Of a stretch of DNA of 37,261 nt, positions 10,511 through 36,903 are shown piece after piece. The DNA comes from Halanaerobiales bacterium (lineage in GTDB: Bacteria; Bacillota; Halanaerobiia; Halanaerobiales; DTU029), in assembly GCA_029981855.1 (NCBI GenBank), contig JARRCS010000021.1:1-37261 (forward strand), in the 5' to 3' direction. The notes beneath the pieces were generated by a model. It saw only the letters and a list, made by a program, of their open reading frames with translations, was not told the origin of the DNA and ran no database searches. Numbering within the stretch: position 1 is the first letter of the stretch; each line of letters opens with the position of its first letter. The position numbers and the translations under genes were made by a program.

Positions 10511-10775
10511 TAATTAAAAAAATTAATTGTTATATTTATTTTTTACTAATAATAAGAATAAATTTAAAAGCAAACTTGTTTCAACCTTCATCCAATCGGA
10601 AGGTTGGATGCTATTTATTCTGTAAATTCATAAGTGGTTACGCTACAATAAAAGTATACCACTTTAAAACCCTTTATTTTCAAGGCGCCAGGTCTAAAAC
10701 CTTCGTCTTTCAAACGAACAGCTTTTAGCATTGACATATTTTAAATGACACCTTATCATAAATGTTGGGAGTGGC

Positions 10776-11145
10776 AAATATATGCCTGATTACAGAAAAG
10801 GAGAAGTTGCAGTACGGACCCGTGATCTACTTAGGCAAATATGTATAAGTCGAGATATAATAATCATCAAAGGAAGTGTAGTGCGGGATCACGTACATAT
10901 GCTAATTTCGTGTTCTACACGATTGTCTCCTGCTAAAATATAGTACAATATCTAAAAGGACGTTCATCGAGGTTCCTACAACAAGAGTTTCCGCATCTTA
11001 GAAAAAGATATTGGGACAACACTTATGGGTACGTGGATATTTTTGTACTACAGTCGGTACAGTAACGTAAGAGATGGTAAAAAAACATATAGAGAACCAG
11101 AAATTTGACATTGAACCCAATGAGTTTAAGATAGAAGACGAATGA
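10776..11145 (+). pseudogene. Broken IS200-type Y1 transposase (tnpA)
   Basis: Plus-strand frames spell GEVAVRTRDLLRQICISRD, then RDHVHMLISC with the HUH histidines (DHVH), then RLSPAKI followed by in-frame stops. After a frame change, EFPHLRKRYW is readable; after another, GYFCTTVGTV and EMVKKHIENQKFDIEP up to a stop at 11145. The N-terminus, normally a Y-H-x-x-W segment, is scrambled as well. With at least two stops and two frameshifts, it is inactive. It is the only plus-strand gene remnant in the window. Confidence 0.75.
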
Positions 11146-11164
11146 GTTTCAGTCATAAAACTTC

Positions 11165-11255
11165 GAGGTGGCTTTAGCCTCGGATCTTTCAGCAGGCTTC
11201 AGCCTGAACAAGCGACTTTCAGTCGCAACAACAACCTACCGGCTTTAGCCGGTAG
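11165..11255 (+). repeat. Cluster of four short hairpins at the IS200 right side
   Basis: Four hairpins stand in a row: 11165-11181 (GAGG..GGCTTTAGCCTC), 11193-11206 (CAGGCTTCAGCCTG), 11212-11226 (GCGACTTTCAGTCGC) and 11236-11255 (CTACCGGCTTTAGCCGGTAG). All share TTTA, TTCA or TTTCA loops. They are probably end structures of the element. Confidence 0.6.
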
Positions 11256-11308
11256 TGGTTGAGTATTACGGGTTTATTTTGATTATTTTTCAAATTACAA
11301 GGTCAATT

Positions 11309-11860
11309 TCATTCCAATGTATTTTGTTGTGAATGTCTGTTTGCCAGGTTGTGGCAGTCATATTGAATGGTATTTTCAATCTTTATCTCCCGGCCTTTGT
11401 AGCGGATTTTTCTCTGAAAATATTCATTTAAATCAGTAAGCAGTAATTTCTTACCCTCATCATTTAATGTTAAACCACCTCTAACTTTATCAAACTGAGA
11501 TTTATTCACCTTTTTCCTGCTAAAAAGCTTCATGACTACCCAACAGGAAAAATATTTGCGGGATATATTTCCTTCATATCCCATGAGACTGTTTCTAACC
11601 TCGGCCACAGGACCCGAAACCCTGGCCAGTTTCTTTTTTAAGAACTCTATTTCTTTTAATTTTTCATTTAGATATTCCTGTTTTTCCTGGGAACGCTTAA
11701 TACCCAACTCATATAAATGATCAATCATATTTTTGGTTTTGGCAAGCATCAGCTCTTTTACAATTTTTGTCCCTTCCTCGGTTTCCGTTAGTTCCAGCTG
11801 CCGTCTTCTGATATAGGTTGTACTCCCAAGTTTGGGATGCCAGATCTTGCCCAGTGACCT
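11309..11860 (-). pseudogene. cas1: cas1 remnant with internal deletion
   Basis: The frame from about 11860 reads Cas1 sequence: LGSTTYIRRRQLELTETEEG, then KTKNMIDHLYELGIKR and RNSLMGYEGNISRKYFSCW. The Glu of YEGN matches the first catalytic metal ligand. The text then jumps to LFSRKKVNKSQFDKVRGGLT and ends near NTIQYDCHNLANR, which is the C-terminal part of the family. About 100 residues carrying the catalytic His and Asp are missing, as is the N-terminal domain. The longer open frame to 11932 is a shadow of cas3. The Cas1 family normally has about 330 residues, so this cannot integrate spacers. Confidence 0.75.
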
Positions 11861-12548
11861 ACCAAACGTTACAGCGTCCGCAGCTTTGATTAATGGAATC
11901 CAGTGGAGCAAAATCTCGATATACCCGATCAAAATCTATATCCACTCCTGCCTCAACCAGCTGGGTAGATACTACTATTAGAGGTTCATCGGCATTTTTG
12001 ATCTTCTCTATTCTCTTCGTTAACTCTTTAGTTACGAGGTTTTTTGACAGGTAAATAACATTCTTGTATTCCAGATCATGTTTTATAAAATTATAAATTT
12101 CAATTGATGATTTTATTGTATTGAGAATGAAAAGAAAGCTCTTTTCCGGATATTCAGTCTTCAAATCTGCTTCAATTATTTTTTTAAATATATCAAGATC
12201 GATCTCTTCTCGATAATTACTTAAATCAAGTTCTATCCGGTCACAGATCATAAAGTATTCTACTTTATCAGTGGCTAGTTCTTTTATTTCCCCTTTTTCT
12301 TCATTAAAGATTAAAGGCATAGTGGCTGTGACAAAAATAAAATAGCAGTTAAATTGATCAGCTATCTCACGAAAAACTCTTTTTATCAGTAACCAGTATT
12401 TATGAGGTATTGCCTGAACCTCATCCAGCACAATGATTGAATTACAAATATTGTTAAATTTCTTAATACTTCGGTTATTATTGGTCAAAATTGATTCCAG
12501 AAGCTGGACAAAGGTTATGGATTTATAACCTTTATACCGATAGAGCAT
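11859..12548 (-). pseudogene. cas3: cas3 helicase remnant
   Basis: A fragment of about 220 residues of the Cas3 DNA helicase. From residue 11 it reads SITFVQLLESILTNNNRS, then motif II LDEVQAIPHKYW, motif III TATMP, and motifs V/VI VVSTQLVEAGVDIDFDRVYR followed by SINQSCGRC. The N-terminal HD nuclease, the Walker A motif and everything after QSCGRC are missing; full-length proteins have about 750-800 residues. Its first codons lie in cas5 sequence, and its last run out of frame into the cas1 remnant, so both ends are deletion joints. It cannot hydrolyse ATP. Confidence 0.82.
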
Positions 12549-12745
12549 TTTTTATCCTGGAAAAAATTCAAATAATACTCCTTATTATCCCGTTCCTTAC
12601 TAAAACCCAGGATTGCCCCTACAATACCGTAAATTACTGTCTTTGGAGGTAGACTAAAGGTCAGAGGAGATGTTGTAGTATAATATTTCTTGAAATGTGC
12701 ATAATCACCCTTCAGGTCAAAAGCAAGGACCTTAGCAATTGACAT
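12515..12745 (-). pseudogene. cas5b: cas5 (type I-B) N-terminal remnant
   Basis: It encodes 76 residues beginning MSIAKVLAFDLKGDYAHFKK and continuing SPLTFSLPPKTVIYGIVGAI, the classic start of type I-B Cas5, which folds as a RAMP protein and caps the 5' end of the crRNA in Cascade. It breaks off at IGIKVINP where a complete protein of about 240 residues would continue. The start has a GAAGGTG ribosome site and follows the cas7 remnant after 24 bases, so this junction appears natural. The break joins directly to cas3 sequence. Confidence 0.82.
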
Positions 12746-12769
12746 CCTGTTTCACCTTCTTTAAAGGCA

Positions 12770-13300
12770 TTATAAATTAAATGCTTTAAATTTATTAATC
12801 TCGTTAAGATTAACCATTTCACCATTTGCAGTAAGCTCGACCCTATCATCAATAATATAGTCTATCGATTCAATCTTATCGTCATTATCTCTTAAAATGT
12901 CCAGCAACGCTGAGATGTCCAGAGTAAAATCGGATATATCCCTAATCTTCTCATCCATCAGATCGGATTTAAGTTTGATATATTCCTTTAACTCACCTAT
13001 ATAAAAATTTCTTTCGCTGTAATTAACCTTAATTAAAAGGCGGGGAACCTGTCCAAATTTAGAACGGCTGATCAAGTTTTTGGTACCTTCCCACATACCC
13101 TCTATAAGCAATTTTACATCTTCTTCCGTCAATCCGGTATATTTGGCTGCATTTTCGTTAATAATGCCATAAAATCCGATCAGTGAGTAAGGAAGGATAT
13201 ATTCTTCACGGAAGGTTTTATTTTTACTGCCTTTTTGTGCTGCGAAAGCTCCGGTTCCCTTAATATGCTTCACTTCGACAGCATGTAATGAACGCCCCAT
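12770..13300 (-). pseudogene. cas7: cas7 (Csh2-type) C-terminal remnant
   Basis: From its first residues it reads GRSLHAVEVKHIKGTGAFAA, an internal piece of the type I-B Cas7/Csh2 backbone protein, and continues to a natural-looking end (INKFKAFNL). A whole protein has about 300 residues; the first 120 or so are absent. The apparent ATG start is accidental, since the upstream bases belong to the cas8b remnant, which overlaps by 31 bases in another frame. The joint lies near 13290-13300. Confidence 0.8.
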
Positions 13301-13845
13301 CTGAAACTGTACAGGTCCGGTACATCAAAGTCCTGCATGATTTCAAAGAAGTCATCTTCAGCGAGTGTCAATTTGTCCCGATTCTCTTTTTTTAAAGAAA
13401 ACTTTCTTTTTTCCTCCAGGCTTTCCAGGGTTTCAAACATATATTCTTTACTTTCTTCGTCTGTTCCAAACTGCTGGTATATTCCCATAACTTCCCTTGC
13501 CTCAGATGATTCGTTATTCAAAACTTCATAGGTATTCTTTAAAGGATATTGTATTCTATTAAATGTATTTTCTAATTTCGTAATTTTTGAGGTTGGAGTC
13601 AAGTCTCCACCCCTCGAAGTTCCTGCTCCGTACGCGTATTTTTTTAATTTTTCCCTGCTGAACTCCTCCACTTTTATTTCTTTAAAAACGATCCCATCTT
13701 CTTTTTCTTCAAATAAAATAACTAACACCGTATTATATCTACCATTGTTATTAGGGTTTTCAATTATTTGTTCTATGTAGCCTTTTTTTGATTTTTCCAG
13801 GGCATAGTCACCAATCTGTTTTAATGCAGGTAACACGATTTTCAC
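13270..13845 (-). pseudogene. cas8b: cas8b (Csh1-type) N-terminal remnant
   Basis: It encodes 191 residues that look like the start of the type I-B large subunit Cas8b/Csh1: MKIVLPALKQIGDYALEKSK, then YAYGAGTSRGGDLTPTSKIT and an FNRIQYPLKNTYE stretch. The family has about 500-600 residues, so two thirds are missing. The gene has AAGGAGG upstream, and DVPDLYSF ends the recognisable part just before cas7 sequence begins. It is the first gene of the remaining operon; cas6 is not visible upstream. Confidence 0.72.
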
Positions 13846-15492: not shown

Positions 15493-15601
15493 CTCAAAGC
15501 CTCCTCAATACAATTCTCTTCCCTCATCAATGCGAACACAAGCTGTCACCGGCACCGTGTTCCTCCCCCATCTCCCAAAATCTTCACTGCCAGATCCATA
15601 C

Positions 15602-15750
15602 TTAAAACTTCACTGCCGTACCGCAAGCTACTATTTCTGCTGCTCCGGAAGTAATCATTGAAGTAGCAAAACGCACACCGATAACTGCGTCTGCTCCCAG
15701 TTTTTCTGCTTCAGTAATCATCTGCTCTAGAGCACTTTCCCGGGCATCTT
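15602..15750 (-). pseudogene. ybjQ (UPF0145) C-terminal remnant
   Basis: The last ~49 codons of a YbjQ-type protein: RESALEQMITEAEKLGADAV, IGVRFATSMI, then EIVACGTAVKF before the stop at 15602. Whole proteins have about 105 residues. The N-terminal half is gone, and the reading frame runs straight from an IS110 transposase fragment (TKTDKKDA) into ybjQ (RESALEQ). The DNA between here and the hydrolase (15493-15601) shows no gene. Confidence 0.75.
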
Positions 15751-16115
15751 TCTTATCGGTTTTAGTTGGAGAATTATCATCAAGTGTTTTACTCTTTTTT
15801 ACATGGGCAGGATTAACTGTTACTACCTTTATACCTTCCTGCCATTTGAGATACTGTTCTAAAGGTAACCAGATGGTCAGCAGGTTCCATACCTACTAAT
15901 GCCTCAGTCTTGCCATACTTTTCTTCCATTAACTTGGTCCAATTGAGAAACTGGTTAAAACCAAGTATGTTATTAGGAAAAATAATTGGTTATCCATATT
16001 GTATGCCTCGATAGTCCTGTGCTCTTGCAACATGATTGTTCCTGGCAATATCAACTCCCACTACTAATGTTGTTTCTTTTACTTGCATTATCTTATGATT
16101 TTGTGTATAATTCAT
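15745..16115 (-). pseudogene. IS110-family transposase N-terminal remnant
   Basis: Starts at ATG 16115 with AGGAGG 8 bases upstream: MNYTQNHKIMQVKETTLVVG, then VDIARNNHVARAQDYRGIQY before a stop/frameshift. It resumes as NNILGFNQFLNWTKLMEEK, YGKTEALVGMEP, and, after further damage at the TGHYW-like site, KKSKTLDDNSPTKTDKKDA. This is the DEDD (RuvC-like) domain of IS110 transposases, of which the first Asp is in GVDIA. The C-terminal half is replaced by ybjQ sequence. Inactive. Confidence 0.75.
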
Positions 16116-24627: not shown

Positions 24628-24672
24628 AAAAAAAAATTAAAAATCCCATGGAAGGTGTAAACCTCACCATGG
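24628..24672 (-). terminator. Strong terminator before the GntR operon
   Basis: On the minus strand CCATGG (24672-24667) pairs with CCATGG (24651-24646), with an inner AGGT/ACCT stem, followed by GATTTTTAATTTTTTTTT. It ends transcripts coming from the EamA side. The stop codon of the small HTH frame lies inside the stem. Confidence 0.8.
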
Positions 24673-24792
24673 AAAGGTACGAATATTTATACCAAAAAAG
24701 TCAGCAAAATCCTGTGCAGACCATTTTTTATGACCACTCTTTAATAAAGTTAAGATTTTTAGAATCCTGAATATTTTATTCCTTTCAATCAT
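24664..24792 (-). pseudogene. Truncated helix-turn-helix regulator, 42 residues
   Basis: ATG at 24792 with AAAGGGG 8 bases upstream opens 42 codons: MIERNKIFRILKILTLLKSG, then SAQDFADFFGINIRTF. This is the first helix-turn-helix of a WYL/DeoR-like regulator, up to the R-T residues of the recognition helix, and then it ends in the stem of the terminator. The body of the protein is missing. It is likely a deletion relic; a genuine micro-protein is less likely. Confidence 0.6.
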
Positions 24793-24850
24793 AAAATACC
24801 CCTTTCAATCCTTCTATTATTATAGATTTAGGAACTCAGTAAGAGTGGCT

Positions 24851-36013: not shown

Positions 36014-36903
36014 ATTTCAATTCCACTCTGGTGCGATTAAAACTAGAAGTTTAAATAGCGTTTTCCCCCAAAGCCTAAAATTTCAATTCCACTCTGGTGC
36101 GATTAAAACACGCAGAAACAATTAGCAAAAAAATTAGGAATATCCCATTTCAATTCCACTCTGGTGCGATTAAAACCGCTACATCAACAGCAGTTTTTAA
36201 TTCTCCTGCTGTATTTCAATTCCACTCTGGTGCGATTAAAACTGGAAAGTTGCAGTATCAAATTGGGATTGTCCTTATATTTCAATTCCACTCTGGTGCG
36301 ATTAAAACATCATTTTTCGACCACTGGCAAGTGGCAAATAAATTATTTCAATTCCACTCTGGTGCGATTAAAACCTCGTTCATGTATGACACTTCTACTA
36401 CACCTTTGCCATTTCAATTCCACTCTGGTGCGATTAAAACCTCAACTATTTTCCCCATTTTTCACCTCTCCTTTTTATTTCAATTCCACTCTGGTGCGAT
36501 TAAAACTGGTTTAGGTTATGTAATAGCGTTTGTAATTATTGTTATTTCAATTCCACTCTGGTGCGATTAAAACCATTGTGTAACCAACTTCACTGCTCCC
36601 ATCAATGTAATTTCAATTCCACTCTGGTGCGATTAAAACCCTGTTAAGAGCGGTGTTGGTGATTGAGTTTTTAAAATTTCAATTCCACTCTGGTGCGATT
36701 AAAACTCGTGGAAAATAAAAAAACAACATTATATATCCCGGATTTCAATTCCACTCTGGTGCGATTAAAACATAATATCGCTTTTGGTTATTTCCGGTAA
36801 AATACTAATTTCAATTCCACTCTGGTGCGATTAAAACCTTTCACCCATGTCTCTCCCTTTTTCAAAATCAGGAATTTCAATTCCACTCTGGTGCGATTAA
36901 AAC
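36014..36903 (-). CRISPR. CRISPR array, 14 repeats and 13 spacers (type I-B repeat)
   Basis: Fourteen identical 30-base repeats (begin ATTTCAATTCC, end GATTAAAAC) start at 36014, 36080, 36147, 36213, 36279, 36345, 36411, 36477, 36544, 36610, 36676, 36742, 36808 and 36874. Spacers are 36 bases, two of them 37. In the other orientation the repeat begins GTTTTAATCGC and ends GGAATTGAAAT, giving the ATTGAAA(T/C) tag of type I-B crRNAs, so transcription should run on the minus strand with the leader beyond 36903. All repeats are intact and no two spacers match, so the array was active until recently. The nearest cas genes (11309-13845) are broken. Confidence 0.97.

What the first reader, a model, noticed from the sequence alone, without database searches (positions are those of the whole stretch)
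11309..13845. Type I-B cas operon decayed by repeated internal deletions
The operon keeps gene order (cas8b, cas7, cas5, cas3, cas1), but each joint removes the end of one gene and the beginning of the next: cas8b to cas7, cas5 to cas3, cas3 to cas1, plus a gap inside cas1. The pieces that remain are free of stops. cas6, cas4 and cas2 are absent. Decay by deletion without point mutations is unusual and suggests it is recent.
Basis: partly seen in the sequence, partly recalled or inferred. Interest (0 to 1): 0.65.

Follow-up and report, generated by a model that had tools for sequence, protein, structure and literature searches.

The report
CRISPR operon shredded by serial deletions
This bacterium carries the dead remains of a CRISPR immune-system operon in which at least five deletions removed two thirds of the sequence but left the remaining pieces in order and free of stop codons; it is a clear example of how bacteria erase unused genes, not a new kind of system.

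Summary
Window 11309-13845 (minus strand) holds fragments of type I-B cas8b, cas7, cas5, cas3 and cas1, in order. Against intact relatives the 7.8 kb from cas8b to cas1 has shrunk to 2.5 kb through five joints. The cas3-cas1 joint also removed all of cas6, which lies between them in two relatives. The missing pieces occur nowhere else in the 2.59 Mb genome, with positive controls. No other Cas1, no Cas2, no CRISPR_Cas6-family or RAMP protein was found. No product can work. Assembly error is unlikely. A relative from another family (G055) shows the same mode of decay in the same operon, and another deletion fusion (IS110-YbjQ) lies on the same contig. 'Recent' is only bounded: zero stops in 2,472 nt allows up to 2.7% neutral divergence. 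Best explanation: ordinary deletional decay of an abandoned CRISPR-Cas locus. A 14-repeat orphan array lies 22 kb away. Interesting mainly as a well-resolved example.

The parts
13324..13845 (-). cas8b (TM1802/Csh1 type) remnant: residues ~1-121 fused in frame (J1 at ~13471) to residues ~282-330 of a 612-aa protein; start codon and RBS kept
   Evidence: PF09484 1.5e-20; BLAST to L018 residues 4-163 and 282-330; alignment
13470..13471 (-). joint J1: in-frame deletion of ~160 codons inside cas8b
13320..13324 (-). joint J2: cas8b '...QDFD' to cas7 'TGPVQFQMGRS...', out of frame; C-terminal ~280 aa of Cas8b and N-terminal ~120 aa of Cas7 lost
12773..13320 (-). cas7 (Csh2) C-terminal part, open, 77-80% identical to G004
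   Evidence: TIGR02590 6e-50, positions 130-285
12521..12745 (-). cas5b N-terminal ~75 residues
   Evidence: PADLOC Cas5b 5.6e-29, positions 2-65 of 223
12515..12521 (-). joint J3: cas5 '...GIKVIN' to cas3 'TFVQLL...'; C-terminal two thirds of Cas5 and N-terminal ~395 aa of Cas3 (HD nuclease, Walker A) lost
11868..12515 (-). cas3 middle piece: helicase motifs DEVQ, TATMP, STQLVEAGVD up to CGRCN
   Evidence: PADLOC Cas3b 3.8e-86; 60-61% identity to residues 397-615 of intact Cas3
11866..11868 (-). joint J4: cas3 '...CGRCN' to cas1 'FGRSLGK...'; C-terminal Cas3, cas6 and N-terminal ~75 aa of Cas1 lost
   Evidence: gene order in L020/L021
11336..11866 (-). cas1 remnant: residues ~75-181 and ~261-329, joined in frame at J5 (~11540-11548, with about 9 nt of unclear origin)
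   Evidence: PF01867 7.7e-21
10760..11270 (+). frameshifted IS200-type tnpA remnant with terminal hairpin-like sequence, where cas2/cas4 would be expected
   Evidence: PF01797 5.9e-8 and 1.7e-5 in two frames; translations
36014..36903 (-). orphan CRISPR array: 14 perfect repeats (GTTTTAATCGCACCAGAGTGGAATTGAAAT), 13 spacers of 36-38 nt

Best explanation
A chromosomal type I-B CRISPR-Cas operon (probably cas8b-cas7-cas5-cas3-cas6-cas1-cas2-cas4) lost its function and is being erased by successive spontaneous deletions of about 0.2-1.7 kb, probably of the short-repeat or end-joining kind, which leave the remaining blocks in order. At least five such deletions removed about 5.2 of 7.8 kb between cas8b and cas1; further loss took cas2, cas4 and any adjacent array. 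No product can work as a Cas protein. Shown: the joints, the lost parts, and their absence elsewhere in the genome. Inferred: that the deletions were separate events, and their molecular mechanism.
For: Profile hits confined to the retained blocks. Collinear alignment with intact operons of relatives, with clean joints. The removed parts give no hit in the own genome, while the same query hits G004, G020 and G023 strongly. No second cas1 or cas3, no Cas2, CRISPR_Cas6-family or RAMP protein. Catalytic parts are lost: HD and Walker A of Cas3, and the stretch of Cas1 that holds its conserved His and Asp (residue roles from general knowledge of these families). A relative operon in another family (G055) is decayed in the same way: cas3 cut to two pieces, one internal joint at a sequence sharing ACTAA, cas1 and cas2 removed, cas4 cut. 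The same contig carries an IS110-YbjQ deletion fusion. Deletion as the primary force eroding bacterial pseudogenes is established (PMC2916853).
Against: No close relative (same species or genus) with the intact operon is held, so the order, number and mechanism of the deletions cannot be fixed, and short repeats at the window's joints could not be resolved. Two joints are in frame (chance 1 in 9), which could hint at selection. [quoted passage not shown]
Confidence: 0.9

Rival explanations
1. Assembly or amplification artefact: the genome has an intact operon and the joints are misjoins.
For: The assembly is a draft of 39 contigs and this contig ends in a repeat (IS3-like sequence).
Against: None of the removed 5.2 kb is anywhere in an assembly estimated 100% complete, although the query finds it in three relatives. 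Five same-strand misjoins in unique sequence are implausible. G055, an independent assembly, shows the same pattern.
Confidence: 0.04
2. One complex event (for example a polymerase skipping forward several times along one strand) made all joints at once, which would explain why the pieces carry no small lesions.
For: All joints are in one transcription unit, same orientation and order, with no stops in 2,472 nt.
Against: Zero stops does not need one event (up to 68 neutral substitutions are compatible). G055 shows partial loss with one small frameshift.
Confidence: 0.06
3. The shortened ORFs (191-aa Cas8b derivative, 207-aa Cas1 derivative) are retained because they have a new function.
For: Both internal joints (J1, J5) are in frame; the cas8b start codon and RBS are kept.
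Against: The ends at J2, J3 and J4 are out of frame and cut through domains; catalytic regions are lost. There is no sign of unusual constraint: relative-rate counts against G004 are even or slightly higher in the window (chi2 0.01-3.6).
Confidence: 0.03

Closest known systems
Type I-B CRISPR-Cas (cas8b/Csh1, cas7/Csh2, cas5b, cas3)
   Same: Families and gene order match intact operons of the same class
   Different: Every gene is truncated; cas6, cas2 and cas4 are gone; no neighbouring array; not functional
Loss of Cas/CRISPR and repeat-mediated deletions in Haloquadratum walsbyi HBSQ001 (PMC3119063)
   Same: A whole CRISPR-Cas system lost by deletion with a residual array left; many deletions at short direct repeats
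   Different: There nearly the whole locus is thought to have gone in one event; here a row of fragments remains
Deletional decay of bacterial pseudogenes (PMC2916853)
   Same: Accumulated deletions erode an unused gene
   Different: [quoted passage not shown] here large deletions dominate
Decayed I-B operon of genome G055 (L019/L045)
   Same: Same operon family, fragments in order, cas3 internal joints, cas1/cas2 removed
   Different: cas8b, cas7, cas5 and cas6 are intact there; different joints; one small frameshift

Membership tests
Type I-B CRISPR-Cas system | Subtype-specific Cas8b (TM1802/Csh1) with Cas7/Csh2 and Cas5b | tested here: met
   PADLOC and NCBIfam hits to Cas8b, Cas7b, Cas5b, as fragments
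Type I-B CRISPR-Cas system | Complete effector with Cas3 nuclease-helicase and Cas6 | tested here: not met
   Cas3 lacks HD, Walker A and C-terminus; no CRISPR_Cas6-family hit in the genome and a relative's Cas6 gives no hit
Type I-B CRISPR-Cas system | Adaptation module Cas1-Cas2(-Cas4) | tested here: not met
   Cas1 only as two joined pieces without the His/Asp region; no Cas2; no other Cas1
Type I-B CRISPR-Cas system | Array next to the operon | tested here: not met
   Only arrays found: 22 kb away with a 30-nt repeat unlike the longer repeats beside the relatives' operons, and a 2-repeat remnant on contig C10
Pseudogenised operon by deletion | Collinear blocks of an ancestral operon with missing internal segments and no intact copy | tested here: met
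Pseudogenised operon by deletion | Short direct repeats at the joints | tested here: inconclusive
   Relatives are too distant at the window's joints; one G055 joint shares ACTAA with both sides in L020

The most novel reading that the evidence does not exclude
In this bacterial class I-B operons are repeatedly dismantled by a distinct deletion mode (serial in-operon deletions hitting cas3 and cas1, with few small lesions), possibly in one complex event or under selection to disarm the nuclease and adaptation genes first.
Probability: 0.1. Interest if true: 0.5.

Novelty: new member of a known kind. Interest (0 to 1): 0.3.

Why it matters
It is a well-resolved snapshot of how a CRISPR-Cas locus disappears, with every lost segment mapped and a second, independent case in a related lineage (G055). 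Together they would let one test whether cas loss proceeds by large deletions rather than by point mutation, and which genes go first.

Tried and rejected
Scrambled or split copies elsewhere in the genome: none. Self-targeting of the cas remnants by the orphan array's spacers: no convincing match. Array matches in phage records: none; the two plasmid matches cover 10-38% of the query at about 70-74% identity, in regions without annotation, and were not taken as spacer targets. A close homologue with usable DNA identity: the genome-contig scan gave only a 30%-identical Cas3, and the class-wide search nothing nearer than G004. Microhomology at the window's joints: unresolved. The first array search with a wrong gap length missed the array and was corrected. 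A fragment first suspected to be cas6 at 24667-24804 is the N-terminus of an HTH regulator.

Full report
What is there. On the minus strand of 13845-11309 five open stretches follow each other. Profile searches name them Cas8b, Cas7/Csh2, Cas5b, Cas3 and Cas1, each matching only part of its profile. Whole-genome searches of relatives gave intact operons of the same family. G004 (same family; cas8b, cas7, cas5 and the first 401 residues of Cas3, where its contig ends) is the closest: Cas7 is 77-80% identical. L020, L021 and L022 have full operons. The full order in L020 and L021 is cas8b-cas7-cas5-cas3-cas6-cas1-cas2-cas4; in L022 and L043 cas6 comes last.

Joints. Alignment and DNA at the joints give five deletions. 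J2: cas8b '...QDFD' to cas7 '...TGPVQFQMGRS'. J3: cas5 '...GIKVIN' to cas3 'TFVQLL'. J4: cas3 '...CGRCN' to cas1 'FGRS', taking cas6 as well if the order was that of L020. J5: cas1 '...KYF' to 'VVMKLF', in frame, with about 9 nt of unclear origin between. The 7.8 kb from cas8b to cas1 in L020 is 2.5 kb here. Beyond cas1 come unrelated sequence and a frameshifted IS200 tnpA; cas2 and cas4 are missing.

Artefact or real. A 1,560-residue query made of most of the missing parts finds nothing in the own genome, but gives strong hits in G004, G020 and G023, so the pieces are truly absent from an assembly rated 100% complete. There is no other Cas1 or Cas3, no Cas2, no CRISPR_Cas6-family protein (only 2 of 14 control genomes ring for this model, so it alone is weak) and no RAMP protein.

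How old. The retained 2,472 nt have no stop in the coding frame. About 4.4% of random substitutions would make one, so up to 68 neutral substitutions (2.7%) are compatible at 95% (the mutation weights are assumed). Relative-rate counts against G004 (33 v 34, 45 v 30, 38 v 31, 39 v 24 with four outgroups; chi2 at most 3.6) show no significant excess of change. The decay is therefore not old, but 'recent' is only an upper bound, and absence of point mutations is not shown.

Is it special. G055, from another family of the class, has the same operon with intact cas8b, cas7, cas5 and cas6. Its cas3 is reduced to two pieces, one with a 37-residue in-frame deletion that removes the HD motif, at a joint sharing ACTAA with both sides in L020. 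cas1 and cas2 are deleted down to about 14 codons of cas1, and cas4 is cut; there is also a small frameshift. G046 has cas6-cas8b-cas7-cas5 with no cas3 or cas1 beside them. On the window's own contig an IS110 fragment is fused in frame to the C-terminus of a YbjQ protein (the IS110 match is weak, below the Pfam cut-off), and a 42-residue stub of an HTH regulator remains at 24667-24804. Deletion-driven erosion thus looks general in this lineage. [quoted passage not shown] a halophilic archaeon lost its Cas system by deletion and has many deletions at short direct repeats (PMC3119063).

The array. A 14-repeat array with perfect 30-nt repeats lies at 36014-36903, next to an IS3-like sequence (recognised by eye, not by search) in which the contig ends. 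Relatives of the I-B operon have other, longer repeats, so this array may have belonged to another lost system. A two-repeat remnant lies on contig C10. None of the 13 spacers convincingly matches the cas remnants.

Taxonomy is not given by the tools. Contig lengths of relatives (2,613,117 and 2,578,146 bases) recall Halanaerobium hydrogeniformans and Halothermothrix orenii, which would make this Halanaerobiales; this is from memory and untested.

Verdict. The finding is correct and is refined here. It is a dead type I-B locus, decayed by at least five deletions; a known process, and a good example of it.

Noticed in passing
window 36014-36903: Orphan CRISPR array, 14 perfect 30-nt repeats, in a genome without a detectable intact Cas1, Cas2 or RAMP gene; followed by IS3-like sequence at the contig end.
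   Followed up: partly
window 15600-15870 (minus strand): IS110-like transposase fragment fused in frame to the C-terminus of a YbjQ-family protein: another deletion fusion.
   Followed up: partly
window 24667-24804 (minus strand): 42-46 residue N-terminal stub similar to the HTH part of a WYL-type regulator that sits next to the I-B operon in L022.
   Followed up: partly
L019 7740-9420 (G055): Independently decayed I-B operon: intact Cascade genes, shredded cas3, cas1/cas2 deleted, cas4 cut; a Cascade without nuclease.
   Followed up: partly
L041 3572-7787 (G046): cas6-cas8b-cas7-cas5 without cas3, cas1, cas2 or cas4 beside them.
   Followed up: partly
L036 1501-1574 (G000:C10:100343-100416): Two-repeat remnant of another CRISPR array (TAGTCTACCTATGAGGAATTGAAAC).
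   Followed up: no
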